A stretch of DNA of 64,000 bases from a virus. Under the pieces are notes generated by a model that had not been told where the DNA came from, made no database searches, and worked only from the letters and a program-made list of their open reading frames with translations. The stretch's first letter is position 1. Each line of letters begins with the position of its first letter. Of the stretch, positions 22,211 to 39,366 are shown in pieces. The DNA is taken from positions 33,695 through 97,694 of IMG/VR virus record IMGVR_UViG_3300013014_000024; one strand, written 5' to 3'. The translations under genes were made by a program, and so were the position numbers.

Positions 22211-22223
22211 AAAAATAGATATT

Positions 22224-22439: not shown

Positions 22440-22445
22440 AATAAT

Positions 22446-22516: not shown

Positions 22517-22523
22517 CAAAAAT

Positions 22524-22609
22524 ACGTGTGTGGCCGAGAGGTTTAGGCAACAGTCTCCAAAACTGTACGGACGAAAGTCCTAACGTGGGTTCGAATCCTA
22601 CCATACGTG
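22524..22609 (+). tRNA. Class II tRNA with anticodon CCA
   Basis: Acceptor ACGTGTG/CATACGT, anticodon arm ACAGT CTCCAAA ACTGT giving CCA (Trp codon), T-arm GTGGG TTCGAAT CCTAC and G73. The variable region is long and forms an arm (GGAC GAAA GTCC), as in Ser, Leu or Tyr tRNAs, whereas bacterial tRNA-Trp has a short one. The gene looks intact; the amino acid it carries is uncertain. Confidence 0.8.
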
Positions 22610-22809
22610 CAAAAGGTTGATTGGGGAATGGGATATCGCAACCTGATGATGGAGGTTGGAGATTCTCGGAGTTGAAATCATCAAGTAATGCCAATCGTAA
22701 AAGGAGTTGTCCACTCGACCATCTTCTCCTTTCCTAACTTTTGGAAGTATTGTTTATTTTGAGTTATCCGCGGTTTGAGTATAGATACTCAACAATTAGT
22801 TCTTTGAAT
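22610..22809 (+). other. Array spacer with a tRNA-sized structured element
   Basis: No protein gene. GATTGG near 22619 and CCAATC near 22693 could close a 76-nt element that includes GATGAT...ATCATC pairing, but no tRNA arms could be drawn inside. The rest of the spacer (22700-22809) holds the short inverted repeat GAGTAT/ATACTC and nothing else recognisable. Confidence 0.35.
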
Positions 22810-22894
22810 TGCTTCGTTGCCGTAGTGGCCGAACGGTCCAGACTGTTAATCTGGTGTGTAAAAACCATCGTAGGTTCGAATCCTACCGAAGCAG
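22810..22894 (+). tRNA. tRNA-Asn (GTT) with long variable region
   Basis: Acceptor TGCTTCG/CGAAGCA is perfect, anticodon arm CCAGA CTGTTAA TCTGG (GTT), T-arm GTAGG TTCGAAT CCTAC, G73. The variable region is 15 nt, like class II tRNAs. The D-arm and anticodon stem resemble bacterial tRNA-Tyr (GTA), so this may be a Tyr-type body with an Asn anticodon. Confidence 0.82.
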
Positions 22895-22979
22895 CTTTAA
22901 ATACGGAGATAAAAAAATAAAACTATACAAAGTATAGTTTTAGGGTTCAACTTACATATTTATATGTAAAGACTTAGTT

Positions 22980-23609
22980 ATGAAACATTGTGTAAAATGT
23001 AATAGAGAATTTGAACCAAAAAAGGGCCTCATAAATTATTGTAGTTTAGAGTGTAGAAACAGTAGAAGTTGGACAGAAAATGACAAAATTAAAAAATCTA
23101 TTTCAGCAAAAAATTCAGATAAAGTAAAAATTGCAAATAAAAAAATAGGTTTATTAAATCATGAAAAGGCCACAATAAAAACTATGTGTCTACATTGTCA
23201 AGAACTAATAGTTCACACTAGATGGAAATCAAGAAAATATCACAAAGAATGCTGGTTGAAGTCATCTGGGGGATATAGGGAAAATTCAACTGTAAAACAC
23301 AAATGTTTTTATAAAGGGGTTTGTATGGATTCTGGCTCTGAAAAAGAATTTGCCATAAAATGTGATGAACATAATATTGCTTGGGAAAAAAACAATATAA
23401 TATACTTTGAATACATAGGGGTTGATGGTAAAAAACATAAATATTATCCTGATTTTTATATAAAAAAAAGTAATAAATGGGTTGAAATAAAAGGAAAATT
23501 ATATGGTGAAAAAGATGTAAATTTGGAAAAAAAATTATTGTCAGTAGATAACATTATTTTGATATATTCTAAAGAAATTAAAAAATTTGATTTTGGTCTA
23601 TTGGTGTAA
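22980..23609 (+). CDS. Homing endonuclease in the tRNA array (PD-(D/E)xK)
   Basis: 209 residues. The N-terminal zinc finger (CVKCNREF, then YCSLECRNS) and a second CxxC (MCLHCQE) are followed by a nuclease domain, GSEKEFAIKCDEHNIAWEKN and YYPDFYIKKSNKWVEIKGK, with PD and ExK. It is a paralogue in style of the ORF at 17528. The last 15 nt, including the stop codon, lie inside tRNA-Asp, so translation and tRNA processing compete. A short hairpin (AAACTATAC/GTATAGTTT) lies before it. Confidence 0.85.
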   Translation: MKHCVKCNREFEPKKGLINYCSLECRNSRSWTENDKIKKSISAKNSDKVKIANKKIGLLNHEKATIKTMCLHCQELIVHTRWKSRKYHKECWLKSSGGYRENSTVKHKCFYKGVCMDSGSEKEFAIKCDEHNIAWEKNNIIYFEYIGVDGKKHKYYPDFYIKKSNKWVEIKGKLYGEKDVNLEKKLLSVDNIILIYSKEIKKFDFGLLV

Positions 23610-23667
23610 GGGCTAACATGTCGCACTGTCGATGCGAAGACTCTCGGTTCGAATCCGTGATAGACCG
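23595..23667 (+). tRNA. tRNA-Asp (GTC)
   Basis: Acceptor GGTCTAT/ATAGACC is perfect, anticodon arm TCGCA CTGTCGA TGCGA (GTC), T-loop TTCGAAT, G73. It overlaps the 3' end of the endonuclease gene by 15 nt. Confidence 0.92.
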
Positions 23668-23947
23668 CAGTGAGTAAGAGATACTCAGAGTCTTTAATCC
23701 AAGACTTAAACAATGGGTAGATGTTTGGTAGTATCAGTCGTAAATGACTACTCATGGGAATAACGTTGATAAACCTATCCTCGCCCAGTAAAGGTTGACA
23801 GGTTTTTATGTGGTAAGACACTAATGAAAAAGACCTAATTCATGAGGTAACTATATGGGTTATCAAACAGATATAGGGGATATGGTTCTCGAACAGTCAG
23901 AGAAACCCGTTAAAATCTACTCATCATCAATCTCATGATGGGGACAT
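23668..23947 (+). other. Structured spacer between tRNA-Asp and tRNA-Gly
   Basis: 280 nt without a convincing gene. Several short perfect hairpins follow one another (GAGT/ACTC, AGTCTT/AAGACT, AGTC/GACT), and base composition is closer to tRNA than to the AT-rich coding DNA. It may contain decayed tRNAs or an unknown RNA. Confidence 0.4.
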
Positions 23948-24020
23948 GCGGAAGTAGCTCATTCGGTAGAGCACAACCTTGCCAAGGTTGGGGTGGCCAG
24001 TTCGAGCCTGGTCTTCCGCT
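23948..24020 (+). tRNA. tRNA-Gly (GCC)
   Basis: Acceptor GCGGAAG/CTTCCGC, D-arm GCTC/GAGC, anticodon arm CAACC TTGCCAA GGTTG, T-arm GCCAG TTCGAGC CTGGT, T73. Canonical in every arm. Confidence 0.95.
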
Positions 24021-24070
24021 CAAGGGGTGGTGGGAACCCATGAATATGTGATGAATATATACCCACAAAT

Positions 24071-24144
24071 GCGGATTTCGCCTAGTTGGTATGGCATCAC
24101 ACTTCCAATGTGAAATAGGGTCGGTTCGAGCCCGATAATCCGCT
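24071..24144 (+). tRNA. tRNA-Gly (TCC)
   Basis: Acceptor GCGGATT/AATCCGC, D-arm GCC/GGC, anticodon stem CACA/TGTG with loop CTTCCAA giving TCC, T-loop TTCGAGC and T73. Confidence 0.9.
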
Positions 24145-24200
24145 CAAGTGGGCCTTTGTGGACGGCCGAAAGGAAAATAGGTTTTTTTCATCCACTATAT

Positions 24201-24325
24201 GGTCAGGTGGCGGAATTGGTATACGATGAAAAACTGCAATGAGGTAGGTCGAACCTCACATTAAACAAAAAAGGCATCAACGCAGGAGTGCGGAAGCGTT
24301 GCAGGTTCGAATCCTGTCCTGACTA
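24201..24325 (+). tRNA. Leu-type tRNA gene with an insertion, 125 nt
   Basis: Ends are those of a class II tRNA: acceptor GGTCAGG/CCTGACT, TGGCGGAATTGG D-arm as in tRNA-Leu, variable arm AACGC/GCGTT, T-arm GCAGG TTCGAAT CCTGT and A73. Where a 7-nt anticodon loop should be, a GATG/CATC stem encloses about 46 nt, including a hairpin (GAGGT/ACCTC). An intron-like insertion in the anticodon loop is the simplest reading. The anticodon cannot be assigned. Confidence 0.55.
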
Positions 24326-24450
24326 CAGACTCTCGTCTATTGCTGTGAATAGAACTGACGAGAACCATTGAGGGACACAGACCTTATGAATGGTGGTTTA
24401 GGGCGAAGATAGCACCCCTATCACGAAGAGTACCTAAGCTCTTTAAACAT
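24326..24450 (+). other. Array spacer, 125 nt
   Basis: No gene seen. It contains CTCGTC and GACGAG as a long-range pair around an 18-nt loop at its start, and otherwise nothing recognisable. Confidence 0.3.
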
Positions 24451-24609
24451 AGTCAGGTGGCGGAATGTTATTAACCCGTTCTAGACGTAAAAATAATGTG
24501 GTTAAAATCCACTACGGGGTCAATGTAACTTGGTAGACGCTCGCTAGAAGGTGCGGTTAGTCAACGATAAGGTAAAGCTAACATACAGGTTCAAATCCTG
24601 TCCTGACTA
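24451..24609 (+). tRNA. Leu-type tRNA gene with an insertion, 159 nt
   Basis: Acceptor AGTCAGG/CCTGACT is perfect, the D-arm starts GGCGGAAT, and the T-arm is ACAGG TTCAAAT CCTGT with A73. Within the D-loop, about 60 nt are inserted that fold on themselves: GTTA...TAAC, ACCCGT...ACGGGGT and inner GTGG/CCAC. After the insertion the tRNA resumes with TTGGTAGACGC. A variable arm GTTAG/CTAAC is present. The anticodon is unclear (TAG occurs near 24543). Confidence 0.5.
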
Positions 24610-24862
24610 CACGTTCCGTCTAATCAACGGATAGTTCAATCCTGAACGATGAGAAATGGTGTGATAACCATATGGGTCAGTTCACCCTGAGTGGGGCGGT
24701 AAAGGGTACGGTTGACTGCCGTTAGATTGTATCTACAAAAGTCTATTCCTAACCTGTATGATAGAGAGTTGGTTGTATTAACACACCTTCATCAAAAATG
24801 CTAAACTCTTTCTTAGGGACAGCCATAATACCTGTAAGTTGGATAAATTAGGGTGTTAGTTT
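24610..24862 (+). other. Array spacer, about 250 nt
   Basis: No protein gene and no foldable tRNA found. Composition is GC-richer than coding DNA here, and short pairs such as CCGTCTAATCAACGG (CCGT/ACGG) occur. It may hold decayed tRNA or an unknown RNA. Confidence 0.3.
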
Positions 24863-24935
24863 GGTCTTATAGTATAATGGATTAATACACTTCGATACGG
24901 ACGAAGAAATTTGGGTTCAAATCCTAATAGGACCT
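24863..24935 (+). tRNA. tRNA-Arg (ACG)
   Basis: Acceptor GGTCTTA/TAGGACC, D-arm GTAT/ATAC, anticodon arm CTTCG ATACGGA CGAAG (ACG), T-arm TTGGG TTCAAAT CCTAA. 73 nt. Confidence 0.9.
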
Positions 24936-24940
24936 CATAT

Positions 24941-25017
24941 GGTGGATATAGCTTAATTGGTAGAGCACTAGCTTGTGGCGCTAGTTGTTGCGGGTTCGAG
25001 TCCCGCTATTCACACCA
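24941..25017 (+). tRNA. tRNA-His (GTG) with encoded CCA
   Basis: Acceptor GTGGATA/TATTCAC with an extra 5' G (G-1), the His identity element. Anticodon arm CTAGC TTGTGGC GCTAG, T-arm GCGGG TTCGAGT CCCGC, then ACCA. It is the only tRNA in the array with a genomic CCA. Confidence 0.92.
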
Positions 25018-27209: not shown

Positions 27210-27230
27210 ACTATACTAACGGATTTTATG

Positions 27231-27302
27231 AGCCCCCGCCCGGAATCGAACCGAGTTATCATGATTACAAGTCATGCGCATCGCCTGCAATGCTTAAAGG
27301 GC
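27231..27302 (-). tRNA. tRNA-Thr (TGT)
   Basis: D-arm GCAT/ATGC, anticodon arm CATGA CTTGTAA TCATG (TGT), T-arm CTCGG TTCGATT CCGGG. The acceptor GCCCTTT/CGGGGGC has two G-T pairs and one mismatch. Confidence 0.88.
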
Positions 27303-27311
27303 TTGTTTTTA

Positions 27312-27509
27312 TTAAGTATCTTGAAAATTTAATTTGTTCATCTCCTCGATACTTTTAAGACCATTTTTCCACTCTCTCCATATTTCAAAATCCTGAAGGT
27401 CTTGTAAGGTTTTTTCGTGTACCAAGACAAAACCTTCAGGTGCCACTCCTACAAATCTACGAACATTTCCCTCTTCTTCCAAAATTTTTTCAATATTTAT
27501 TTTACTCAT
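27312..27509 (-). CDS. Small hypothetical protein
   Basis: 65 residues with helical ends and FVGVAPEGFVLVHEKTLQDL in the middle. Not recognised. It overlaps the HAD phosphatase stop by 8 nt and precedes tRNA-Thr. Confidence 0.65.
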   Translation of the reverse strand: MSKINIEKILEEEGNVRRFVGVAPEGFVLVHEKTLQDLQDFEIWREWKNGLKSIEEMNKLNFQDT

Positions 27510-28101
27510 CTTTTTTATTTAAATATTTTAGAATAGATTCTTTAATTCCTGTTTGTTTAATCCCCTCATTATCTTTTTCGGTCAATACAAAGTTATCTAA
27601 TCCCCACTCATGTTCGAACTCCATAGAGTAATATAAACCCGTTTTACCCATGTTTAAATCATCTACAGCCACCCAATTTGTTATCTCAGGATGGTCAACT
27701 AAATATTGTTTAATTTCAATAGACCTAGATTGTTCTAAATCCCATTGTCTTTCCCAAGGAAACACATTATTGTCATACCACTTACATTCATACGATTTAA
27801 GAGTAAACGAAATAGGTTTTTTTATAATTCCTTGTGATTCATAGTATTCACCCATTTCTTCAAGATTACAATGAAGTTTCCAATCAGAACTAACAACAAT
27901 CTCAGCTCCAGTTTCTTCTAAAATCTCATTTAAAACTTTTACCGCTTTTTTGTTAAAGTTATCAAACCTATATTCAAGTGGAATTTCTCCATTAGACATA
28001 GACAATTTTCTACCGCCCCATTTTTTTTGTTTTTTATAACGACCACCCCATTCTGTTGATAAACAGATTACTCCGTCATGGTCTAAAAATAGAATTTTCA
28101 T
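27502..28101 (-). CDS. HAD-like phosphatase
   Basis: 199 residues with motif I FLDHDGVI (Asp7 and Asp9), motif II VVSSDWK near 73 and AVDDLNMG near 150. This resembles, from memory, the HAD domain of RNA-repair (Swiss Army knife) proteins, and RNA repair would fit with the RNA ligase and tRNA genes here. Host-type TACTTTTG (28106-28113, minus strand) is 4 nt before the ATG. Confidence 0.85.
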   Translation of the reverse strand: MKILFLDHDGVICLSTEWGGRYKKQKKWGGRKLSMSNGEIPLEYRFDNFNKKAVKVLNEILEETGAEIVVSSDWKLHCNLEEMGEYYESQGIIKKPISFTLKSYECKWYDNNVFPWERQWDLEQSRSIEIKQYLVDHPEITNWVAVDDLNMGKTGLYYSMEFEHEWGLDNFVLTEKDNEGIKQTGIKESILKYLNKKDE

Positions 28102-28176
28102 AACACAAAAGTAGATATTTATTATTAAAACACCAAAAGTCTTAGGACATAAATTTTAAACCCACACAGATGGAAG

Positions 28177-28401
28177 ATGGAGAAAAACAAGTTTACGTGG
28201 CAGAGAACGTTTCAAGACAACCTGTCACAAATATTTCTAATGTTAGCACTATTTTTCAACCCATTCGGGTTCGATGCCGTTCAATATTCTATAATATCAT
28301 GGACAGGAAGTTTATGGAAAGCCAACTTCGTTTTGTATTGTATTGCGGGATTCTTTTTTGGTCTTTATTTCTACTTTCGCAAGTTATCTAACAAACCTTA
28401 A
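28177..28401 (+). CDS. Small membrane protein, two TM helices
   Basis: 74 residues with hydrophobic segments around 18-35 (IFLMLALFFNPFGF) and 48-66 (FVLYCIAGFFFGLYFYF). Another frame over the same DNA is also open but has a less protein-like product. Its last 4 nt overlap the convergent gene. Confidence 0.65.
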   Translation: MEKNKFTWQRTFQDNLSQIFLMLALFFNPFGFDAVQYSIISWTGSLWKANFVLYCIAGFFFGLYFYFRKLSNKP

Positions 28402-29867
28402 AGTGCTTTAAGTTCACCGTTTTTATATGCTTCAAAATTAGGTCCTTTCATTAAAAAAAATTGGTTTCCTATTTTTCTATATTTCAAAATGCCAGCATTT
28501 TTTGCTGATGCAAAAAAGGATGAAAAATGACCTCTCCATTTTGAGGATTGATGCCAATTATTCATACCTTGTTGGGAGTACCAAACTGAACCATTCTCTG
28601 AAACCTTTCCTTCAAGTTTACCAATCTCAACAAGAAAATCTAACTTTGTTCCAATTTTTCCTTCATCTAACCAATCAACTAACTTTTTAATCAAACCTTT
28701 ATTTTTTTCAAAAGTATATCCGTAATGGAGTCTATCAGGTGTCCATACGGGTGTCTTATGAATATGTTGTAAAAGAATTGAATTATTTTCTAAGATTCGT
28801 CTAACAGAATTTAAGATGTAAGTTGCTATTGTAGAACTAATATTAGTTGTGTGATGTACAATAACATTAAAACTACCCCCAAAACCATCAAAACCTAAAT
28901 CAACTTTAAATTCTGAACCAACGTCACCAAAGTTATAATTAATCTCTAAACCGTATGACGAATCTCTTTTTCTTAAATTAGCACTAATAATAATTAAATA
29001 TTCATCCAACAAACCTTGTTGTTTTTCTTTTCTTTCATATATCTTCAAACCAGAATGAACTATGAAGGTGTTTTCATAATGGTCCATAAGTTCAAATCCG
29101 TTTATTGTTGTCGTTATTATAACATCAGAAATTATAATACTTTCAGTAAAAACATCGTTTGTTGTAAGTGATTGTTTTATTTTATCGACTGTTTCATCTG
29201 GATGAGCATCATCGTGATATTCTTTAATGGTTTTCCACATTTCAGAATATGCATTTTTAAAAAATACTTTTTCTCTACTACTTAAAGTGCTATCGGCAGC
29301 ATCGTAGAATGTTTCCTCACCTTGATTACTAATGTGAATTGCAATTTTATATAGATTTTCATCCATATCTTTTTTTGAAATTACATAGTAAAGACCTTGA
29401 TTACCTGAAGTATACCTGTTAAAGTAATCATCGTTATTTTTATTTGTTGTACACCATCTTGTTTTTGAACCGTATTTACAAGATGCCGCAAAGTTTTGAG
29501 GTTCAACAACAACAAATTTATCATCTTCGTATATTTTTTTTGATTTTGGTTTCTCTTTGTTTCTAGTGTATTCACTAATTCTTGAAATCAAATCAAAAAA
29601 TCCTGTATAATCATTTATGTCTTTTTTTTCTAAATTGTTTTGTACTTTATCAAACTTTTGTAATGCCTCAATTACCTCTTCAAGTTCTCTAAATGAATAA
29701 TTAGAATTTAAATTTTTTAAAATAAAATCGGCGTATTTGTAGTTAGTTTGCTTAATGAATTGGTCCGCAAAAACGTTACTAAGACCCTCATCTGAGAATT
29801 TTGATTCGTATTTTTTCATGAGGTCTTCTTTTCTTCCCTCCCTTAATAAAATGGTCATGAATTTCAT
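28398..29867 (-). CDS. Phage protein with YGxxTxWCT motif, 489 aa
   Basis: TATTTAT (29873-29879, minus strand) is 5 nt before the ATG. Near residue 125 is SCKYGSKTRWCTTNKNNDDY, then GLYYVISKK, a module seen in many phage proteins of unknown role; a diverged relative lies at 34414. The C-terminal part has WYSQQGMNNWHQSSKWRGHF. No enzyme signature is evident. The N terminus MTILLREGRKEDLMKKYESK is amphipathic and may also act as a tag. Confidence 0.8.
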   Translation of the reverse strand: MKFMTILLREGRKEDLMKKYESKFSDEGLSNVFADQFIKQTNYKYADFILKNLNSNYSFRELEEVIEALQKFDKVQNNLEKKDINDYTGFFDLISRISEYTRNKEKPKSKKIYEDDKFVVVEPQNFAASCKYGSKTRWCTTNKNNDDYFNRYTSGNQGLYYVISKKDMDENLYKIAIHISNQGEETFYDAADSTLSSREKVFFKNAYSEMWKTIKEYHDDAHPDETVDKIKQSLTTNDVFTESIIISDVIITTTINGFELMDHYENTFIVHSGLKIYERKEKQQGLLDEYLIIISANLRKRDSSYGLEINYNFGDVGSEFKVDLGFDGFGGSFNVIVHHTTNISSTIATYILNSVRRILENNSILLQHIHKTPVWTPDRLHYGYTFEKNKGLIKKLVDWLDEGKIGTKLDFLVEIGKLEGKVSENGSVWYSQQGMNNWHQSSKWRGHFSSFFASAKNAGILKYRKIGNQFFLMKGPNFEAYKNGELKAL

Positions 29868-29883
29868 ATGATATAAATATGCG

Positions 29884-29907
29884 AAAAGGGAGATTACTCT
29901 CCCTTTT
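29884..29907. terminator. Short bidirectional terminator
   Basis: AAAAGGGAGA pairs with TCTCCCTTTT around TTAC. It lies between tRNA-Arg and the gene at 28398. Confidence 0.65.
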
Positions 29908-29910
29908 ATG

Positions 29911-29982
29911 TGGTCTCGTCAAGAATCGAACTTGAATCTGGAGATTAGAAGTCACCCGTTCTATCCGTTGAACTACGAGACC
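29911..29982 (-). tRNA. tRNA-Arg (TCT)
   Basis: Acceptor GGTCTCG/CGAGACC, D-arm GTTC/GAAC, loop CTTCTAA (TCT), T-arm TCAAG TTCGATT CTTGA, A73. It is outside the main array and begins 1 nt after the stop of the upstream membrane-protein gene. Confidence 0.92.
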
Positions 29983-29983
29983 A

Positions 29984-30331
29984 TTATTTCCAAAATAATT
30001 GTATCAACAATATACAAAAACTTAAAGATAAACAAATAATTGTTTTAATAGTAAAACTTTCTTTAAATAAAATAACGGACATAAATGTAAACACAACCAT
30101 ACCAATTGAAAATCCTAACAACCTTCCTGGCCATATCTGACCACCAAACCCATCCGCAATAAAACTAACTGATTTAATATATAACCAACTTGTAAAAATA
30201 CTACTAAAAAGTATTACCCATAAATATTTTTCATACCAATTATACTTTATTGCAACCTGTAATTGTATAAAGGAACCTATTTGTCCTAATAAGGCAAAAA
30301 ATATTCCAATCAGTATTTTATTTATATCCAT
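29984..30331 (-). CDS. Four-helix membrane protein, SMR-like
   Basis: Start at ATG 30331 (MDINKILIGIFFALLGQIGS), 6 nt after host-type TATATTTG (30338-30345, minus strand). About 115 residues with four hydrophobic segments, the size and plan of small multidrug resistance (EmrE-like) transporters. The membrane-embedded Glu of that family is not at its usual place near residue 14, so transport is uncertain. Confidence 0.75.
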   Translation of the reverse strand: MDINKILIGIFFALLGQIGSFIQLQVAIKYNWYEKYLWVILFSSIFTSWLYIKSVSFIADGFGGQIWPGRLLGFSIGMVVFTFMSVILFKESFTIKTIICLSLSFCILLIQLFWK

Positions 30332-30363
30332 TTGTAACAAATATAGTAAAAATTTGTAACAAA

Positions 30364-30388
30364 AAAACCCCACCGAAGTGAGGGTTTT
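30364..30388 (-). terminator. Rho-independent terminator
   Basis: AAACCC and GGGTTT pair with CGAA in the loop. T7 follows on the minus strand. It ends the tagged gene 30406-30726. Confidence 0.8.
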
Positions 30389-30405
30389 AAATTATATGAT
30401 TTTTA

Positions 30406-30726
30406 TTATTTTTTGTTCTTTATAATTAATTCACCTAAAACTTCTAATCTCCCCACTTCAGTTTGAAACTCTTTTTGTGTCATATCAAGTGAGATAGAAT
30501 TTAATGTTTTTTTAAACTCTTCAATAGATTTATTTTCATCAAATTTACCCTCACCAGCTTTTTTATAATATGGTAATTTCACAACAAAGTGTTGATATGT
30601 TAGTATTGAAGGTCCACCTTTCTCTTTTGCGGTATTAGCAATTTTTTCAGCACCAGAAAATCTTTTCTTCGCAAATTCTTCTAAATTTAATTTTTTTAGT
30701 TGTGATTCGGTTATAATTATTTTCAT
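30406..30726 (-). CDS. Virion-tagged small protein
   Basis: 106 residues beginning MKIIITESQLKKLNLEE, the clearest copy of the shared tag. The body is basic then acidic (GPSILTYQHFVVKLPYYKK). TATTTAT (30732-30738, minus strand) is 5 nt before the ATG and a terminator follows, so it is a single-gene late unit. An internal virion protein is the working idea. Confidence 0.78.
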   Translation of the reverse strand: MKIIITESQLKKLNLEEFAKKRFSGAEKIANTAKEKGGPSILTYQHFVVKLPYYKKAGEGKFDENKSIEEFKKTLNSISLDMTQKEFQTEVGRLEVLGELIIKNKK

Positions 30727-30769
30727 ATATTATAAATATATTGAAATTATAAATGTAAATTACACAACA

Positions 30770-30813
30770 ATAAAAGAGATATGGATATGATTAATGACCA
30801 AATAATATCTCTT
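30770..30813 (-). terminator. Hairpin terminator after the phosphoesterase gene
   Basis: AAAGAGATAT pairs perfectly with ATATCTCTTT across a loop of about 20 nt and is followed by a T-rich stretch on the minus strand. Confidence 0.6.
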
Positions 30814-30819
30814 TCAAAA

Positions 30820-31617
30820 TTAATCTTCTTTCCTGTGTTCCAATTCAGTAGTAATTCTATTAGTTTCATATTTTTTTAATTCTATTTGTCCATTATTATC
30901 AACAACAAGTGCGGTCATATTCTCAACCCAATCACCTGAATTTAAGTATCTTTTATTGTTAATCATTCTATCTGCAGGTTGATGAATATGTCCACAAATA
31001 ACACCTTCACATCCAGCTTTCTCGGCCATATTGATGGCAGTAGTTTCAAAGTCGTTAATATATAAAGTTGCGGTTTTTACTCCCTCTTTAATTTTTTGTG
31101 AAATTGATTGATAAGATAAACCCCTCCACGCCCTGTATTTGTTATACACTCTATTTAACCAAAGAGCCATATCGTATCCTATTGAACCTATTCTTGATAA
31201 CCACTTATATTTTGTTATAAAAACATCAATAACATCTCCATGAAAAACATAAAAATTTCTACTGATAAAAACATCTCTGGTTTTCCATTCTTGGGTTTTC
31301 AGAATAAAGTTTTCTTTAAATTGTATATTTCCAAATGAGGTATCAATAAATTCAGATAAAAATTCATCATGATTTCCTCTAATCCAAATAACATTTGTGT
31401 CATTTGACATTGTTAAAATTTTAGAAATTACTTTGGTGTGTTTTTTCTTCCACTTGCTACCCCTATTTAATGCCCAAGCATCAACTATATCACCATTCAA
31501 TACTAAAGTATCGCACGGATGTTGTTCTAAAAACTCTAAAAACTCATTACATTTACTATCCTTAGTTCCTAAATGTAAATCAGAAACAATAACATATTGA
31601 TATTTTTTCATTTCCAA
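30820..31617 (-). CDS. LpxH-like metallophosphoesterase
   Basis: 265 residues with VSDLHLG (Asp13, His15), LNGDIVDAW (Asp43), IRGNHDEF (81-86), YVFHGDVID and CGHIHQPAD. The HGDVxD and GHIHxP spacing resembles UDP-2,3-diacylglucosamine pyrophosphatases of lipid A synthesis. It overlaps the glycosyltransferase upstream by 10 nt; an alternative start at 31611 would reduce this. The pair suggests remodelling of the host envelope. Confidence 0.88.
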   Translation of the reverse strand: MEMKKYQYVIVSDLHLGTKDSKCNEFLEFLEQHPCDTLVLNGDIVDAWALNRGSKWKKKHTKVISKILTMSNDTNVIWIRGNHDEFLSEFIDTSFGNIQFKENFILKTQEWKTRDVFISRNFYVFHGDVIDVFITKYKWLSRIGSIGYDMALWLNRVYNKYRAWRGLSYQSISQKIKEGVKTATLYINDFETTAINMAEKAGCEGVICGHIHQPADRMINNKRYLNSGDWVENMTALVVDNNGQIELKKYETNRITTELEHRKED

Positions 31618-32309
31618 TAATTGTGGTCTTTTTCAAAGAAGGCAGGATTATTTTTATTTAACATAGAAAGAAACATCATTTTAATCATATATAAAAGACC
31701 TTTTTTCTTTAATCTTCTATCTGTTGTATAAACTTTATGATTAGAAATGAAAATTTTATCAGGATGTATTTTACTACTTAAATCATAGTCCTCGGCAAAT
31801 AGAACTTTAGAATTGAATCCACCAAGCTCAAAAAACTTGTTTCTATTAAACAACATAAATCCACCTAAAACAAATGGAAAATGATTCATAGTCCAATCTC
31901 TAAAAAACTCAAATATTGGATATACGTATGAATATTTTCCTCTACATCTAAATTTAGCAGTTACTAACTCTAAATCACCACCCTCAATTATTTTTAAAAT
32001 ATTATGTGTTGTATTGGTATCTGTTAAAAATATATCAGCATCTAAAAATAAGATATATTTTGTTTCTGATAAAATTGCTCCGTTATTCCTTGCAATAGAC
32101 GGAACACCTCCTTGAGTAAATTCTATATTAATATTTTCGTATTTTTTTGATAGAACTACTTCTTTTGTGTTATCGGTAGAGTTATCACAGATAATAACTC
32201 TTGTATTTGAGATATGTTTTTGTTTGTTAAGTAAATCCAAAGTAGTACTTATGACTTCAGATTCATTTTTACAAGGTATTACAATAGTTAATAACTCATT
32301 GATTTTCAT
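31608..32309 (-). CDS. Family 2 glycosyltransferase
   Basis: 233 residues: TIVIPCKNESEVI at the N terminus, CDNSTDNT near 41, ARNNGAIL near 73, the metal site LFLDADIF (DxD at 90-92) and FAEDYDLSSKI near 177. This is a complete GT2 core. TATTTAT (32314-32320, minus strand) is 4 nt before the ATG. With the LpxH-like gene it may alter host LPS, or decorate the virion. Confidence 0.9.
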   Translation of the reverse strand: MKINELLTIVIPCKNESEVISTTLDLLNKQKHISNTRVIICDNSTDNTKEVVLSKKYENINIEFTQGGVPSIARNNGAILSETKYILFLDADIFLTDTNTTHNILKIIEGGDLELVTAKFRCRGKYSYVYPIFEFFRDWTMNHFPFVLGGFMLFNRNKFFELGGFNSKVLFAEDYDLSSKIHPDKIFISNHKVYTTDRRLKKKGLLYMIKMMFLSMLNKNNPAFFEKDHNYWK

Positions 32310-32359
32310 TCTGATAAATATGGAATGAAACCGACTTTCGTTTTAATAAATTATTAAAT

Positions 32360-32842
32360 TTATGGTGTTACAAAACTATTATTTAGCGACCCATCATTTC
32401 TATCTGACGGAGGAGGATATAATAAAGTTTTATTACTTTTAATAATTTTTAACACCATATTTTTATAACCCTTAGTTGTTGAATAGTATTTGTCTAAATA
32501 GTTCAAATATGATGCCCTTGTAAATTTATGAGTTGAAAACAACATTTTTTGGAACAAATAATAATCTTCAATACTTTCCCTCCAAGAGTTGTAAATTGCG
32601 TATCCATGAAAAGAACCAACAGAAGTTGTTGTTCTTTTCATAGGATTTCGCATACCAAAAATATTGTTATTTTTTTGGGTTAACCTACTGGTAAATCCAC
32701 CCGACTCAAGAACCGCTTGAGCAAATACAATATCAGGAAATTCAAGACCCTGCTCAAGTATTTCATTATATACTCCTAAATGCGTTGCACTGTCTTTTAC
32801 CGGTGTAATCACCGACAAAAGAAAAATCAATATTAACTTCAT
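32360..32842 (-). CDS. Glucosaminidase-type peptidoglycan hydrolase (GH73-like)
   Basis: Start at ATG 32842 (MKLILIFLLSVITPVKDSA, a signal peptide); four upstream codons overlap tRNA-Glu. The catalytic region reads FAQAVLESGGFTSRLTQKNN followed by NIFGMRNP and YAIYNSWRESIEDYYLF, matching GH73 N-acetylglucosaminidases (Glu of LESGG as the acid). A secreted endolysin is likely. The start codon is 2 nt from the 3' end of tRNA-Glu, so tRNA processing would leave a leaderless message. Confidence 0.88.
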   Translation of the reverse strand: MKLILIFLLSVITPVKDSATHLGVYNEILEQGLEFPDIVFAQAVLESGGFTSRLTQKNNNIFGMRNPMKRTTTSVGSFHGYAIYNSWRESIEDYYLFQKMLFSTHKFTRASYLNYLDKYYSTTKGYKNMVLKIIKSNKTLLYPPPSDRNDGSLNNSFVTP

Positions 32843-32843
32843 G

Positions 32844-32915
32844 TAGCCTTGCACGGAGTCGAACCGAAATCTCTACCGTGAAAGGGTAGCGTCCTAACCA
32901 TTAGACGACGAGGCC
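32844..32915 (-). tRNA. tRNA-Glu (TTC)
   Basis: D-arm GTCT/GGAC, anticodon arm CTACC CTTTCAC GGTAG (TTC), T-loop TTCGACT, A73. The acceptor GGCCTCG/CAAGGCT has one mismatch and the T-stem another. It lies between the ncRNA candidate and the lysin gene on the same strand. Confidence 0.88.
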
Positions 32916-33189: not shown

Positions 33190-33738
33190 ATGAACAAAAG
33201 GAAAATAAAACATAAAATGGGTAAATGTACCTGTAAAAATTGTGGTATTGAGTTTGAAAAACCATTGACGGAAATTAGAAGAAATGAAAAATTAAATAGA
33301 CCTAATTTTTGTAGTAGAACTTGTGTCGGAAAAAATAATGCTAAAAATTTTGGTGACAGAAAAAATAATTATGACATTTCACAACATTCAAGTAACCGCT
33401 TAGACGGATATACTAAGTTTAGATACCATTATAGAAATATGAAAAAAAGGTATCATGATATTGACGTAACTATTGATGATTTAAATGAACAATGGAAAAA
33501 ACAAGATGGTATTTGTGAATTTAGTGGAGTTAAATTAAATTTATCATCTTACACTAAAATAAATAAAAATCCAATATATACGGCATCTTTAGATAGAATT
33601 GATAATTCTAAAGGATATATTAAAGGAAATATTAGGTGGGTGTCAAGAGCAATGAATTGGATGAAAAATACTATGTCGGATGAAATGGTTGAGGAACTAC
33701 TCCAAATTATTGTTGAATATAAAAAAACCCCCAATTAA
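33190..33738 (+). CDS. HNH homing endonuclease
   Basis: 182 residues. N-terminal zinc finger (CTCKNCGIEFEKP and FCSRTCVG), then an HNH-like nuclease of the intron-borne type: FSGVKLNLSS, TASLDRIDNSKGYIKGNIRW and VSRAMNWMKNTMSDEM. TATTTAT (33179-33185) is 4 nt before the ATG. It sits beside the intron-bearing tmRNA gene on the opposite strand, so it may be the enzyme that spread that intron or a neighbour that protects it. Confidence 0.87.
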   Translation: MNKRKIKHKMGKCTCKNCGIEFEKPLTEIRRNEKLNRPNFCSRTCVGKNNAKNFGDRKNNYDISQHSSNRLDGYTKFRYHYRNMKKRYHDIDVTIDDLNEQWKKQDGICEFSGVKLNLSSYTKINKNPIYTASLDRIDNSKGYIKGNIRWVSRAMNWMKNTMSDEMVEELLQIIVEYKKTPN

Positions 33739-33748
33739 GGGGGTTTTA
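33722..33748. terminator. Bidirectional terminator between HNH gene and tmRNA
   Basis: AACCCCC and GGGGGTT pair around AATTAA, with A7 and T4 flanks. On the minus strand T7 follows, so it ends the tmRNA transcript as well as the HNH message. Confidence 0.85.
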
Positions 33749-33754: not shown

Positions 33755-34341
33755 TGGAGGTGGCGGGAATCGACATTTTTGGACTATCTCATCATCTTTT
33801 TTAGATGTCGGACGCTCTTGATGGTTTTACGATAGAAGCGTCTATCACCCATTAGTCTCTGCACCTTCTTCTTCCTACGAAGCTTGGCTCAGGATTGTTC
33901 CGTAATTGGAGTTTTCCCTGAATTCATCCGATTTTTCAATCAGTATTCCTACTGAAAGGGGCTCGATTTAACCCGCGTCTTTCCTGTTCAGCAATAAGTC
34001 ACTACAAGTTTAGTTCAACATTTGTTCTAAATGTTCCGAAATATTAGATTTGATGTAAGTGAGAAACAAATCTACAAATAACTTGGTCTCAGAATTATTT
34101 AAGGGAGCTCTGACCTGTGACCCCCATAACGGACTCCTGTTCCTGAGTATATGTCCTAACCGACTCGTAGTTGTTCTCTACAATTATGCAGCAACAACAA
34201 CAGCTTCTCTGGTCAAACCAAGAGCAGCCATTTTAGCAAAAGTTTTGCCTGTTATCTTTACCACCAATGATTAAAGTCGTATGTGACATCCGACTACTTG
34301 CGACTTATCCCTGATACCTGAAATCAATACCTGTCACCCCC
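33755..34341 (-). ncRNA. ssrA: tmRNA interrupted by a group I intron
   Basis: tmRNA frees stalled ribosomes and tags the unfinished protein for Clp proteases. The 5' acceptor GGGGGTG (34341-34335) pairs with CACCTCC (33762-33756), followed by A73. The T-stem is GCGGG/CCCGC with spliced loop TTCGATT. The tag frame follows GATAACA and runs from Gly (34247-34249) for 21 codons, starting GKTFAK and ending EAVVVAA, then TAA at 34184-34186. Pseudoknot-like repeats follow. Promoter TACCTTTG lies at 34361-34368. The T-loop is split by the intron at 33774-33970. SmpB is not in the window. Confidence 0.93.
33774..33970 (-). other. Group I intron (197 nt) in the tmRNA T-loop
   Basis: All four core elements are readable in order on the minus strand: P (AATTCAGGGAAAACT), Q (AATCCTGAGCCAAG), R (GTGCAGAGACTA) and S (GATGAGATAGTCC). 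The 5' exon ends GCGGGT, with its U pairing as U-G with the guide GAGCCC at the intron start. The intron ends in G before exon TCGATTCCCGC. It has no ORF. The core resembles tRNA-Leu introns of cyanobacteria and plastids. Confidence 0.93.
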
Positions 34342-34413: not shown

Positions 34414-35778
34414 ATGGATGAGGAACAAATTCAAGACCCTAAAGACCAAGTTGAAAAACTTTTTGAAGACGATAATGTTTTAATTGTTAGTCCTTTAACA
34501 ATTGAGGCTAATAGTTATTATGGAAAAAATACCCCATGGCATTATGATGGTTATCAGGGTACTAAAGATTTTGAAAGAAAATTAGCGTCTGGTGGTAAAA
34601 TATATTATATAATTAATAAAAAAACTAATGAAAAAGATAGTTTTTATAGAACCAAAGATGGTGATACAGGACTTTCAAAAAATGATATTGATAACTTATT
34701 CAAATTAGCCCCTACCGCAAGAAAAGTTTTAAATGATATCACAGGTAGCGATGTTTTCAAAAAACTTAGACAATATGCAAAAGGAAATATAGACGTAACT
34801 ACATTAGTAAATTCTGATGATTTAATTTATGACGTAATACAAAATAGAAAAAGTCCCGGTGATTCAAAAATAGTATTAAGTTTTGAAGAAGATGAGGACT
34901 TATATAAAATATTGGATTTTAATGATGATGATATTTGGTTCCTTAATATCATAGAGTCAAGAGATTATGAATTCACAGATTCAGATAGAATGTGGGAGGA
35001 TAACAAAGAAGGATATGGAATTTTTCGTTGGTTTAACGATTCAAATACAAATAAGTTAAGAGAAATCTCACAAATTGTTATGCCCGATAGGGAATTTGAT
35101 ACAAATTCCGAAAGTTTTATGGGTGAACTTTATAAAAAATTAGATGAACCTTTTGATAGTCAACTTGATAGGATGAATTGGGCATATATTGATGAATTTA
35201 ACGAAAAATCATCTGAACATGCCAGAACTGAAATTACTCATGAGATTGAAACGTACTTAAAAAGTAAAGAATTCACTCTGGTTAGAAAATACGATAGGTT
35301 ATCAATTGCTATTTCAGATTTAATTTATTTGTATTCAATAACAGGAAATAGGTATGCCGATTTAAAAACTTTATTAGAAATTGTTTTAAAACCTGGTAGA
35401 GGAGAAAATATTGGAGGATGGGGTGAAAATTATTATGAATACGAAGGTAAGGTAGATACAGATATGCTCAATAATGAATTTGAAACTCAATTAGATAAAA
35501 TATTTGATACTCTATCTGAAGACGAGAATTTGCAAGGATATTTTAAATTATACGAAGAAATTACATCAAAATATAAACTAAATACTTGGTATTCAACTCC
35601 TAAAGATGATAATATTATTTTTAGAATAAAAAAAATTAACCAAGATACATTATCGATAGTAGTTGATTTAAATCTAAAAGATAAGTCAGTTTGGGGTAAA
35701 ACCCATTCTTTTTCTGAAGAAAACTTTAATAAATTTTTATATCAACCAGAATTATTTAGTATTTTTCATGAGGATTAG
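34414..35778 (+). CDS. Hypothetical protein, diverged relative of the YGxxTxW family
   Basis: 454 residues, acidic. Near residue 35 is YYGKNTPWHYDGYQGTKDFE, then GGKIYYIINKK, parallel to SCKYGSKTRWCT...GLYYVISKK in the gene at 28398, but with His-Tyr in place of Cys-Thr. The rest has no recognised domain. TATTTAT (34401-34407) is 6 nt before the ATG, so it is probably late. Confidence 0.8.
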   Translation: MDEEQIQDPKDQVEKLFEDDNVLIVSPLTIEANSYYGKNTPWHYDGYQGTKDFERKLASGGKIYYIINKKTNEKDSFYRTKDGDTGLSKNDIDNLFKLAPTARKVLNDITGSDVFKKLRQYAKGNIDVTTLVNSDDLIYDVIQNRKSPGDSKIVLSFEEDEDLYKILDFNDDDIWFLNIIESRDYEFTDSDRMWEDNKEGYGIFRWFNDSNTNKLREISQIVMPDREFDTNSESFMGELYKKLDEPFDSQLDRMNWAYIDEFNEKSSEHARTEITHEIETYLKSKEFTLVRKYDRLSIAISDLIYLYSITGNRYADLKTLLEIVLKPGRGENIGGWGENYYEYEGKVDTDMLNNEFETQLDKIFDTLSEDENLQGYFKLYEEITSKYKLNTWYSTPKDDNIIFRIKKINQDTLSIVVDLNLKDKSVWGKTHSFSEENFNKFLYQPELFSIFHED

Positions 35779-35814: not shown

Positions 35815-36654
35815 ATGTCAGACTTAAATTTTCTAAAACAGGTTCTAAGCGTACCCACCGTAACTTACAACGAAGGATTAATGGTGGACTTCATCACAAC
35901 TTTTTTGGAAAAAAATAACATTGAGTATTTTGTGGATACGAATAACAATGTTTATGCCACAAAACATGATGGAAGTGATTTACCTCAGGATTTTTATTAC
36001 CCATGTGTTATTTCACACACCGACACGGTTCATGCCATTGATTCAATTAATGTTATTGAAGGTAAATTACCTAATGCTCAGGGTGATGTAAAAGACGCTC
36101 TACTCGCAATTAATAACGAAGGCAAACCAACAGGTATCGGTGGTGATGATAAATGTGGTGTTTTCGCATGTCTTACTCTACTAAAAGAACTCCCATTTTT
36201 AAAGGCCGCTTTTTTCGTATCTGAAGAAACTGGTTGCCACGGTTCAAAAGATGCGGATGATGAGTTTTTCTCAAATGTCGGATACGGAATCCAATTTGAT
36301 GCACCTGAGAATTGGATGATTACTGAAAAATGTTTTGGTTCCAAACTTTTTGATAGAGAAAGTGAGTTTTTCACCAAAATAGATAAGGTTCTTACTGAGA
36401 ATATGGTGGTTAAAGATATGGACTATATGACCCACCCTTACACAGATGTTTGGGCTCTTCGTAATCTATATAATTTTGCTTGTATTAATTTCTCAATTGG
36501 TTATTACAACTATCATACCCGTAATGAATATGTAATTCCTGAAGATGTATATAATGGAATTAAAATGGGTCGTGAAATGATTGAGAGTTTGGGATATACC
36601 TTACACTATAAGGAGAAACAAAAAGCTCAAATGAGATATGGTTTATGGGATTAA
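35815..36654 (+). CDS. M20-family zinc aminopeptidase (PepT/carboxypeptidase-like)
   Basis: 279 residues. The two-metal site is visible: SHTDTVH (His68, Asp70), GIGGDDKCG (bridging Asp111), SEETGCHGS (catalytic Glu137 and ligand Glu138), FDAPEN (Asp162) and a late HTRNEYV histidine. The lid domain of full M20 enzymes is short. Such enzymes cleave small peptides, so it could finish peptides released by the Clp protease. Host-type promoter upstream. Confidence 0.9.
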   Translation: MSDLNFLKQVLSVPTVTYNEGLMVDFITTFLEKNNIEYFVDTNNNVYATKHDGSDLPQDFYYPCVISHTDTVHAIDSINVIEGKLPNAQGDVKDALLAINNEGKPTGIGGDDKCGVFACLTLLKELPFLKAAFFVSEETGCHGSKDADDEFFSNVGYGIQFDAPENWMITEKCFGSKLFDRESEFFTKIDKVLTENMVVKDMDYMTHPYTDVWALRNLYNFACINFSIGYYNYHTRNEYVIPEDVYNGIKMGREMIESLGYTLHYKEKQKAQMRYGLWD

Positions 36655-36719: not shown

Positions 36720-38732
36720 TTATCTACCCTTCTTCACTATTTTAACTTCCTCATTGTCAACAAGTATGTTGTAGGTTTTACCTTCAATCATTCTACCTGT
36801 AAGAACCTCCTCCGACAAGAAGTCCTCAACTTTGTCTTGGATTGCTCTTTTCATCGGTCTTGCTCCGTAGGTTGCATCATATCCAATCTTGGAGATATAA
36901 TCAACAAGAGTCTCTTCATAAGTGATTTTGTATTTCATCTCAACTAAACGAGCCATTAACCTATCAAGTTCAAGTCTTGTGATTTTCTTGATGTCTTCTT
37001 CAGACAAAGTGTTAAACATTATTGTATCATCAATCCTGTTCAAGAATTCAGGTGCAAAGAAGTTTTTCATCTCCTTCATTAACATTTGTTTTTTGGCTTC
37101 CTCATTTGAGTATGAATTTGAACCAAATCCAATACCGACTCCGAACTCTTGGAATTTCTTAACTCCGAGATTTGATGTAAGGATGATTAAGGTGTTTTTG
37201 AAGTTAATCTTTCTACCTAAACTATCGGTAACAAATCCATCATCCATGATTTGAAGGAGAATTGAGAAGATATCTTTGTGTGCTTTCTCAACCTCATCAA
37301 AAAGAATTACAGAGTAAGGTTTGTTTTTAACCTTTTCGGTAAGTTGACCACCTTCATCATATCCGACATAACCTGGAGGAGCTCCAACCAATTTTGAAAT
37401 GGTATGTTTTTCTTGGTATTCACACATATCTACACGAATAAGTGATTCTTCACTTCCAAACATTTCTTTTGCCAAAGTTTTAGCCAAGTGAGTTTTACCA
37501 ACACCCGTTGAACCCAAGAAAATAAATGAACCGATTGGACGATTTGGGTCTTTGATACCAAGTCTGTTTCTCTTGATAGATTTAACAATTTTAATAACCG
37601 CCTCATCTTGACCGATAATCCTACCAATCATTTGTTTATCAAGATTTATCAAAGATTTTGTATCATCAACACTCATTTTATTTACCGGTATTTTGGTCAT
37701 GTTAGATACAACATCATAAACATCTGTAAGGTTTATGACTTGTTTGTCTTTTTGCATTTGGTCTTCAAACTTCTTCTTTTCTGATTCAAGTTTGGTAACC
37801 AATTTCTTTTCCTTATCCCTAAGTTCAGCGGCTTGTTCGTAATTCTGTTTCTTTACGACTTCCATTTTCATCAGCCTCAATTCAGAAGCTTTCTTTTTTA
37901 GGTCTTCAATGGCCTCAGGAACTTTGAGTTCGGTTTGCATACGAGCCCCAACTTCATCCATAATATCAAGCGCTTTATCAGGAAACTCCCTATCGGTAAT
38001 GTATCTATCAGCAAGTTTTACACAGGCTTCAATGACTTCATTACTATAAGTTACCTTATGGAAGGCCTCATATTTATCCCTAACATTATTCAAGATTTCA
38101 ATTGTTTCTGCAATAGTTGATGGCTCAACCGTAACTTTTTGGAATCTACGTTCAAGGGCTCCGTCTTTTTCAAAAGATTTACGATACTCATCCAAAGTAG
38201 TTGCTCCGATACATTGGAGTTCTCCACGAGCCAAGGCTGGTTTAAAAATGTTTGAGCCGTCCATAGAACCTGCGGCATTACCGGAACCAACAAGGGTATG
38301 GATTTCATCAATGAATATGATGATACTTGGATTTGCAGCCAACTCTTCCATAATAACCTTCATTCTTTCTTCAAATTGACCACGATATTTTGTACCGGCA
38401 ACAACTGAAGTCAAATCAAGTGCAACAATTCGTTTATCAACCAAATTACGAGGACAATCACCATTAAAAATTTTCATGGCCAAACCTTCAACAATTGCGG
38501 TCTTACCACAACCAGGTTCTCCGATAATAATAGGGTTATTTTTCTTCCTACGAGATAGGATTTGGGCAATACGAATAATCTCTCGTTCTCTACCTACCAC
38601 AGGGTCAAGTTTACCCATTTCGGCAAGCTTAATTAGGTCTCTACTAAAGTTATCCAATACAGGGGTTGGACTATCGTTCTGTTTCTGTTTCTTACTTGTT
38701 TTCATATCATCGTCATCCATTAGTTCGTTCAT
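36720..38732 (-). CDS. clpC: ClpC/ClpA-like AAA+ unfoldase
   Basis: 670 residues with two AAA+ domains. D1 has Walker A GEPGCGKT (71-78) and Walker [13 protein letters not shown] short UVR-like helix pair ([17 protein letters not shown]) follows, as in ClpC. D2 has [12 protein letters not shown] and [20 protein letters not shown] corresponds to the IGF/IGL loop that docks onto ClpP. The N-terminal repeat domain of ClpC is missing, so substrate choice or adaptor use may differ. It is divergent from the Hsp20 gene across a double operator. Confidence 0.94.
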
Positions 38733-38949: not shown

Positions 38950-39366
38950 ATGAATTATTATGAAGATTTAGACAGAATGTTTGAACAATTATTTAATCCA
39001 AACGGTACTACTAGCAGTACGTATAAAACATACAGAATTGTTCCTACAAGTAAAAATGAAAAAATTGAAGACTACGAGATTAATACTGTGAAAGATGGTG
39101 CATATCTTCACTTTGAGGTTCCCGGATTTAACAAGACTAATTTAGATGTTCTAATTGAAGGTTCTGAACTTGTAATTGAGGGTATCAGAAAGTATAAAAT
39201 GAATGGTGAAGAAAAAGAAAAAAAGATTAATCGTAGAATTGAACTTAATAATCTTTATGAATCTTCAACATTGGAGGCAACAGTAGAAGACGGAATTCTT
39301 ACCGTGTATATCCCAAGTTTCAAAAAAGAAGCCCAAAAAAAGAAAAATAGGATTAACCTTATGTAA
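38950..39366 (+). CDS. Small heat shock protein (Hsp20/alpha-crystallin)
   Basis: 138 residues. The alpha-crystallin domain runs from about 38 to 130, with LHFEVPGFNKTNLDVLIEGS, then LVIEGIRK, RRIELNNLYE and the closing ATVEDGILTVYIPS. A short N-terminal arm (MNYYEDLDRMFEQLFNP) and basic tail are normal for the family. It holds unfolded proteins until an unfoldase acts, which fits its divergent partner clpC. Confidence 0.93.
   Translation: MNYYEDLDRMFEQLFNPNGTTSSTYKTYRIVPTSKNEKIEDYEINTVKDGAYLHFEVPGFNKTNLDVLIEGSELVIEGIRKYKMNGEEKEKKINRRIELNNLYESSTLEATVEDGILTVYIPSFKKEAQKKKNRINLM

What the first reader, a model, noticed from the sequence alone, without database searches (positions are those of the whole stretch)
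33755..34341. Phage tmRNA gene split in its T-loop by a 197-nt group I intron
Both tmRNA halves and all four group I core elements (P, Q, R, S) are readable, and exon boundaries restore the T-loop TTCGATT exactly. tmRNA genes with T-loop group I introns are known from a few bacteria and phages. Here the intron core resembles tRNA-Leu introns of cyanobacteria, in a Bacteroidota phage. A functional tmRNA would depend on self-splicing.
Basis: partly seen in the sequence, partly recalled or inferred. Interest (0 to 1): 0.85.

Follow-up and report, generated by a model that had tools for sequence, protein, structure and literature searches.

The report
Phage tmRNA gene with self-splicing intron
A virus of Bacteroidota bacteria carries its own ribosome-rescue RNA gene, cut in two by a very compact self-splicing intron that comes and goes between close relatives and usually travels next to a DNA-cutting enzyme gene that probably spreads it.

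Summary
A 390-nt tmRNA (minus strand, 34341-33971 joined to 33773-33755) is interrupted after T-loop base U54 by a 197-nt group I intron (33970-33774). Of 904 possible 197-nt deletions, only this one (with a 1-nt T ambiguity) yields a tmRNA for ARAGORN. The internal guide is complementary to the spliced T-loop; 54 intron pairs are 99.4% kept in nine relatives, 12 with compensatory change. A near-isogenic phage pair (L159/L248) shows the exact empty site. T-loop introns in tmRNA are a known kind (883 published), but this one differs. It sits at subsite 2, published only for Anaerolineae and one Myxococcota, and belongs to a monophyletic phage clade close to phage subsite-3 introns. It carries a P7.1/P7.2-like domain and lacks P9. 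A convergent HNH endonuclease gene lies 17 bp past the tmRNA end. HNH homologues in this position flank 10 of 18 intron-bearing and 0 of 46 intronless relatives (p=3e-7); one further locus has a LAGLIDADG gene there. This matches 'collaborative homing' as known for F-CphI/psbA. Splicing and homing are predicted, not shown. The suggested kinship with cyanobacterial tRNA-Leu introns is not supported beyond the shared core.

The parts
33971..34341 (-). tmRNA 5' exon (371 nt): acceptor-stem 5' strand GGGGGUG through U54 of the T-loop
   Evidence: ARAGORN on the spliced sequence; exon aligned with 25 phage tmRNAs
33755..33773 (-). tmRNA 3' exon (19 nt): UCGAUU, T-stem, acceptor 3' strand, discriminator A; CCA not fully encoded
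   Evidence: sequence
34184..34249 (-). tag reading frame GKTFAKMAALGLTREAVVVAA plus stop (resume codon GGC)
   Evidence: ARAGORN; related 20-22 aa tags in relatives
33774..33970 (-). group I intron, 197 nt, between U54 and U55 (T-loop subsite 2)
   Evidence: RF00028 72.5 bits; empty site in a close pair; covariation
33959..33974 (-). P1: 5' exon GGGU (33974-33971) with intron GCCC (33962-33959), conserved U.G at the splice site
   Evidence: sequence; 9 of 9 relatives keep it
33963..33968 (-). internal guide half that pairs with 3' exon UCGAUU (33773-33768) as P10
   Evidence: 6 of 6 pairs in this sequence; 94.4% of cells paired in 9 sequences, U59-A to C59-G compensatory change in two
33940..33955 (-). 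P2 hairpin with GNRA loop (GGAA)
   Evidence: 5 of 6 pairs with changes on both sides; GNRA loop in all nine
33925..33931 (-). P3 5' strand (3' strand 33814-33808)
   Evidence: invariant
33888..33922 (-). P4 (33922-33917 with 33893-33888) enclosing P5
   Evidence: P4 invariant
33864..33887 (-). P6/P6a
   Evidence: P6a: 3 of 4 pairs with changes on both sides
33782..33857 (-). P7 (33857-33853 with 33786-33782), guanosine-binding helix
   Evidence: invariant
33821..33852 (-). P7.1/P7.2-like hairpins inserted between P7 and P3
   Evidence: 2 pairs with changes on both sides in the inner hairpin; absent from the RF00028 consensus, aligned as an insert
33793..33807 (-). P8; only 8 nt separate P7 (33782) from the 3' splice site, so P9 is absent
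   Evidence: sequence; P9 hairpin present in subsite-3 relatives L079, L095, L100
34346..34368 (-). promoter-like TACCTTTG (34368-34361) and conserved GTTCTTTGA motif just upstream of the tmRNA
   Evidence: family-wide conservation
33718..33747 (-). G+C-rich hairpin plus T-run (AAACCCCC..GGGGGTTTTTTT), terminator-like, overlapping the convergent HNH gene end
   Evidence: sequence
33190..33738 (+). convergent HNH endonuclease gene (182 aa), putative free-standing homing endonuclease
   Evidence: PHROG endonuclease E 4e-22; present next to the intron in 10 of 18 intron-bearing and 0 of 46 intronless relatives; Foldseek top hits are HNH nucleases, none below E 0.018

Best explanation
This is a phage-encoded tmRNA gene (a ribosome-rescue RNA with a 21-aa tag) whose T-loop is interrupted by a compact group I intron. 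In the transcript the intron's guide AAUCGAGCCC pairs with GGGU of the 5' exon (P1) and UCGAUU of the 3' exon (P10). A guanosine bound in P7 attacks after U54, then the freed U54 attacks after the terminal G, rejoining the T-loop GGGUUCGAUU and giving a 390-nt tmRNA that host CCA-adding enzyme, AlaRS and SmpB can use. The intron is an optional mobile element of phage tmRNA genes. In many relatives, this phage included, a free-standing HNH gene lies directly 3' of the tmRNA. Most likely it encodes an endonuclease that cuts intronless T-loops, is blocked by the intron, and so carries intron and enzyme gene together into intronless phages (collaborative homing). Shown here: gene structure, conserved ribozyme fold, exact presence/absence, HNH association. 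Inferred: splicing activity, tmRNA function, cleavage target and homing. The confidence given is for the intron-bearing tmRNA with splicing; for the homing step alone it is about 0.6.
For: Intron model hit. Unique deletion restores a tmRNA. 54 pairs, 99.4% kept, 12 pairs with compensatory changes, 0 of 500 shuffles reach this, and slid controls drop to 30-46%. P1 wobble invariant and P10 covaries with exon base 59. L159/L248: 98.3% identical over 4173 nt upstream, 3' flank identical over 210 nt, differing by exactly a 195-nt intron in the T-loop. L161/L215: 93% identical over 531 nt through the tmRNA, one with intron plus a LAGLIDADG gene directly 3', the other with neither. HNH next to the tmRNA in 10 of 18 intron-bearing versus 0 of 46 intronless nonredundant loci, Fisher p = 2.9e-7. 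Intact HNH ORFs at 52-72% identity in the convergent set with motif SLDRID..GYIKGN conserved. Precedent: F-CphI beside the intron-bearing psbA of cyanophage S-PM2, where the intron blocks self-cleavage (PMC6083498).
Against: No RNA data, so splicing is untested. Loss of P9 could weaken 3' splice-site choice. Several intron-bearing relatives (for example L005, L079, L103, L159) have no homologous HNH gene beside the tmRNA. Loci are related, so the Fisher value overstates independence, and the intron-bearing and intronless loci were found with different patterns. The HNH protein has no significant similarity to F-CphI over its length (19-residue match). No smpB was found in the 97.7-kb record, so function depends on the host's.
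Confidence: 0.88

Rival explanations
1. The intron is real and splices, but the neighbouring HNH gene is an independent intronless-homing gene that merely shares the hot spot; the intron spreads by ordinary recombination or reverse splicing.
For: Intron occurs without an adjacent HNH gene in L005, L079, L103, L159; L159/L248 differ by the intron alone as far as the 210-nt flank shows.
Against: HNH never found beside an intronless tmRNA (0 of 46) but in 10 of 18 with intron; two unrelated nuclease families (HNH, LAGLIDADG) occupy the same spot beside the intron.
Confidence: 0.3
2. The tmRNA is a decaying pseudogene trapped by a dead intron.
For: P9 is missing; RF00023 does not reach its cut-off on the interrupted gene.
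Against: Compensatory changes keep the ribozyme and P10. The tag frame stays open and tag-like across divergent relatives. Promoter and leader motif are conserved. L005 keeps the same structure at 90% exon identity.
Confidence: 0.06
3. Splicing is regulatory: GTP level or host state decides when mature phage tmRNA appears.
For: tmRNA is needed for rescue mostly under stress; group I splicing needs a guanosine cofactor (general knowledge).
Against: Many relatives with near-identical exons and surroundings do without the intron, so it is dispensable.
Confidence: 0.05
4. Assembly or chimera artefact.
For: Metagenomic virus record.
Against: Same tmRNA and intron in L006 from another IMG/VR record and a 90% identical locus in L005; about 18 nonredundant intron-bearing relatives.
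Confidence: 0.01

Closest known systems
tmRNA_intron form of bacterial tmRNA genes (883 sequences, PMC11915505)
   Same: Group I intron in the T-loop, -1 U with U.G pair in P1, terminal G, T-loop restored; the paper mentions a P7.1 region as the usual site of homing endonuclease genes
   Different: Phage-encoded; subsite 2 outside the published Anaerolineae/Myxococcota range; 192-197 nt; no P9; endonuclease gene outside the intron
Subsite-2 tmRNA introns of Anaerolineae
   Same: Same insertion point U54|U55
   Different: About 660 nt versus 197; no RF00028 match at cut-off in the six sampled loci; hosts are Chloroflexota
Phage tmRNA introns at subsite 3 (L079, L095, L100, L013, L102)
   Same: Same tmRNA family, closely related core
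   Different: About 225 nt where measured, P9 present, guide UCGGACCC instead of UCGAGCCC, so the wobble G is moved by one base
F-CphI / psbA intron of cyanophage S-PM2 (collaborative homing)
   Same: ORF-less group I intron with a free-standing endonuclease gene directly 3' of the interrupted gene
   Different: Target is tmRNA, gene is convergent, HNH protein not detectably homologous along its length; cleavage not tested
Cyanobacterial tRNA-Leu (IC3) introns
   Same: Short core motifs GAGCCAAG and GGUGCAGAGACU (comparison from memory)
   Different: This intron has P7.1/P7.2-like hairpins between P7 and P3 and no P9; different insertion context

Membership tests
group I intron | P3-P8 and P4-P6 core with P7 (R/S elements) | tested here: met
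   RF00028 72.5 bits; all helices kept in nine relatives
group I intron | U.G pair at the 5' splice site and terminal G | tested here: met
   GGGU/GCCC and terminal G in all nine
group I intron | guanosine-dependent self-splicing | not testable with these tools
   needs RNA
group I intron subgroup IC3 (tRNA-Leu type) | short J7/3 without P7.1/P7.2, and P9 present | tested here: not met
   32-nt double hairpin between P7 and P3, 8 nt after P7; the defining feature itself is from general knowledge
group I intron subgroup IA | P7.1/P7.2 between P7 and P3 | tested here: inconclusive
   Hairpins present and supported by compensatory changes, but no subgroup model was available and P9 is missing
tmRNA | tRNA-like acceptor and T-arm, G3.U70, tag frame with resume codon and stop | tested here: met
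   ARAGORN on the spliced form; GGGGGUG/CACCUCC gives G3.U70 (sequence)
tmRNA | matches RF00023 at cut-off | tested here: inconclusive
   no match at cut-off on the unspliced gene; the spliced form could not be submitted to cmscan
tmRNA | aminoacylation and trans-translation with SmpB | not testable with these tools
   needs RNA and protein; no smpB in the record
tmRNA T-loop intron form (PMC11915505) | intron at subsite 2, 3, 7 or 8 of the T-loop, restoring it | tested here: met
   subsite 2; numbering checked by finding Anaerolineae with the U54|U55 pattern
collaborative homing system | free-standing endonuclease gene adjacent to an ORF-less intron | tested here: met
   HNH gene 33190-33738, 17 bp past the tmRNA; family association
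collaborative homing system | endonuclease cuts the intronless site and is blocked by the intron | not testable with these tools
   needs enzyme assay

The most novel reading that the evidence does not exclude
A lineage of compact, P9-less group I introns has specialised on phage tmRNA genes. It moved its splice site by one base (subsite 3 to 2, or the reverse) by exchanging the neighbouring A and G in its guide (UCGGACCC versus UCGAGCCC), and it spreads by collaborative homing with interchangeable free-standing HNH or LAGLIDADG endonucleases that cut the tmRNA T-loop.
Probability: 0.45. Interest if true: 0.68.

Novelty: new variant of a known kind. Interest (0 to 1): 0.52.

Why it matters
T-loop tmRNA introns are known almost only from cellular genomes, and how they moved was open. 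Here is a phage family with intron-bearing and intronless alleles, an exact empty site, two neighbouring insertion subsites in one intron lineage, and an endonuclease gene that goes with the intron. This makes intron homing into an RNA gene, and one-base shifts of a splice site, directly testable. It also shows that standard annotation (ARAGORN, and RF00023 on this gene) misses such tmRNAs, so phage tmRNA is under-counted.

Tried and rejected
Instead, one genome contigs pattern scan for subsite-2 ends found Anaerolineae and chance matches but no Bacteroidota. Two of four hits of the first viral pattern scan (L007, L008) were chance matches inside coding DNA. INPHARED blastn hits of the region (Klebsiella, Escherichia and Vibrio phages) cover only the intron core; no INPHARED record matches the tmRNA exons of a relative. 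A RimP-leader and a Phe-leader match are far below cut-off and were discarded. The 'peptidase' gene 35815-36654, at first taken for ClpP, is M20-like and weak. The HNH model is of low confidence (pLDDT 65) and gave only suggestive HNH matches. A first count that used ARAGORN alone missed L159 and L162; an exon profile (nhmmer) replaced it.

Full report
Observation. The window is bases 33695-97694 of a 97,694-base IMG/VR virus record. cmscan with all of Rfam places a group I intron at 33764-33980 on the minus strand with 72.5 bits, E 1.8e-16. The intact window yields 14 tRNAs but no tmRNA. Removing 33774-33970 gives an ARAGORN tmRNA of 390 nt with resume codon GGC and tag GKTFAKMAALGLTREAVVVAA. 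As a control, every possible 197-nt deletion in the region was tried: only two of 904, the two equivalent placements of a single T, give a tmRNA, and of 770 start/length combinations around the site again only those two do.

Boundaries and guide. The 5' exon ends GCGGGU, the intron begins UAAAUCGAGCCC and ends AAAAAUG, and the 3' exon begins UCGAUUCCCGC. The guide AAUCGAGCCC is the complement, with one U.G pair, of the spliced GGGU-UCGAUU. Four pairs are P1 and six are P10. The splice point therefore lies after U54, which is subsite 2 in the numbering of PMC11915505. That numbering was checked here: a pattern for U54|U55 run over 84,980 bacterial and archaeal species finds Anaerolineae tmRNA genes, the group that paper names for position 2.

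Fold. Nine nonidentical introns at the same site were aligned. A named structure of 54 pairs (P1, P10, P2, P3, P4, P6, P6a, P7, two hairpins between P7 and P3, P8) is kept in 99.4% of cells. Twelve pairs have changes on both sides; none of 500 shuffles reaches the observed pairing, both-side changes or covariation score, and slid versions pair in 30-46%. In P10, exon base 59 changes from U to C with the guide base changing from A to G in two relatives; in three others (A59) that one pair is lost. L2 is always a GNRA tetraloop. Between P7 and the 3' splice site only 8 nt remain, so there is no P9. The P9 that the Rfam alignment draws is made of exon bases. Relatives at subsite 3 do have a P9 hairpin with a GAAA loop. 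The subgroup was not settled: the P7.1/P7.2-like hairpins point to IA rather than to the IC3 tRNA-Leu introns, and that reading rests on general knowledge.

Relatives. Pattern scans of IMG/VR, followed by an exon profile search of all fetched loci, give 86 places, 64 after removing near-duplicates: 18 with intron and 46 without. They share a tmRNA family with tags of about 20-22 aa of the type GNTFAKLQAVGLLRTEEVTVA. L159 and L248 are the decisive pair: 98.3% identical over 4173 nt upstream, 94.8% over the tmRNA, identical over the 210 nt held downstream, and differing by a 195-nt intron exactly in the T-loop. The insertion is thus a discrete, optional element with known ends.

Two subsites, one lineage. 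On a tree of intron cores the twelve subsite-2 phage introns form one clade (support 0.83), nested among phage subsite-3 introns. The two subsites differ in the guide as UCGAGCCC versus UCGGACCC, which moves the wobble G by one base. The Anaerolineae subsite-2 introns are about 660 nt and the six scanned have no RF00028 match at cut-off, so the phage group is probably a separate origin at this subsite. The only non-tmRNA introns inside the enclosing clade are L055 and L068. L055 gives a 76-nt tRNA-Lys when spliced in the anticodon loop, among several other, less regular candidate calls. One further phage locus, L082, has a different tmRNA with a 226-nt intron that also fits subsite 2 and has P9; it falls outside the clade.

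Partner gene. Directly beyond the tmRNA, convergent and 17 bp away, lies a 182-aa ORF that matches phage endonuclease families (phrog_3322, E 4e-22; endonuclease VII and HNH families). Homologues (53-72% identical) stand at the same place and orientation in 10 of 18 intron-bearing nonredundant loci (this one included) and in none of 46 intronless ones (Fisher p = 2.9e-7). L078 has a 38% identical gene in the other orientation, and L161 has a LAGLIDADG gene there (Pfam PF14528, E 3.9e-7), while its intronless sister L215, 93% identical over 531 nt through the tmRNA, has neither. This is the arrangement called collaborative homing for F-CphI next to the psbA intron of cyanophage S-PM2, where the intron prevents self-cleavage (PMC6083498; neighbourhood checked; also reviewed in PMC3984707). 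The proteins themselves are not detectably homologous along their length. No nuclease gene was found beside the intron in L005, L079, L103 or L159, so the partnership is frequent, not obligatory. The counts treat related loci as independent and the two classes were collected with different patterns; the p-value is therefore indicative only.

Host and setting. A Bacteroidota-type TAnnTTTG box is found upstream of 45 of 56 family members, against 4.9% of random windows, with a conserved GTTCTTTGA just before the tmRNA. The closest named portal proteins come from a Microcystis phage and from Flavobacterium phages. No INPHARED phage matches the tmRNA exons of a relative. No smpB was found in the record, so host SmpB would be used. 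Several kb upstream of the tmRNA, in intron-bearing and intronless relatives alike, lie an M20-like peptidase gene and a ClpA/ClpC-type unfoldase gene. A link between phage tag and phage unfoldase is attractive but untested.

Verdict. The gene structure is as good as sequence can make it. Self-splicing is very likely, and mobility with the HNH partner is likely but inferred. T-loop tmRNA introns and phage tmRNAs are both known (PMC11915505 lists 883 intron forms and 79 phage tmRNAs; the parts of its main text read here describe no phage intron form, and its supplements could not be opened). The new elements are the subsite-2 phage clade, the absence of P9, the exact empty-site pair and the endonuclease association.

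Noticed in passing
window 36720-38732 (-), 35815-36654 (+), 34414-35778 (+): A ClpA/ClpC-type unfoldase without the N-domain but with an IGF-like loop, an M20-like peptidase and an unknown 454-aa ORF lie next to the tmRNA and stay beside it in many relatives with or without intron; possible phage tag-and-degrade cassette.
   Followed up: partly
window 34184-34249 (-): The tmRNA tag family of these phages is about 21 aa, twice the usual 10 aa, with a conserved pattern G-N-T-F-x-K-L-x-x-x-G-L and a VxVA or VVAA end.
   Followed up: partly
L160:6519-6925, L162:627-1037, L043:1-240: GOLLD RNA (RF02032) lies a few kb from the intron-bearing tmRNA in three relatives; none found in this window at cut-off.
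   Followed up: no
L127, L129, L132, L141, L157: Anaerolineae tmRNA genes with about 660-nt subsite-2 introns that RF00028 does not detect at its cut-off.
   Followed up: no
L055:3497-3756: A phage intron of about 259 nt whose removal gives a regular 76-nt tRNA-Lys (UUU) split in the anticodon loop; among the nearest non-tmRNA relatives of this intron.
   Followed up: partly
L234:1532-1586 and 2152-2206 (-): Two tmRNA 3' ends 620 bp apart on one phage contig, possibly a partial tandem duplication.
   Followed up: no
window 38950-39366 (+): Hsp20-type small heat-shock protein gene (PF00011) near the Clp gene.
   Followed up: no
window 21173-25017 (+), 27230-32915 (-): Fourteen tRNA genes in two clusters.
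   Followed up: no
L082:2507-3693: A different tmRNA (tag ends VENTTPLRMAA) with a 226-nt subsite-2-like intron that has P9, and a 39% identical HNH gene close by.
   Followed up: partly
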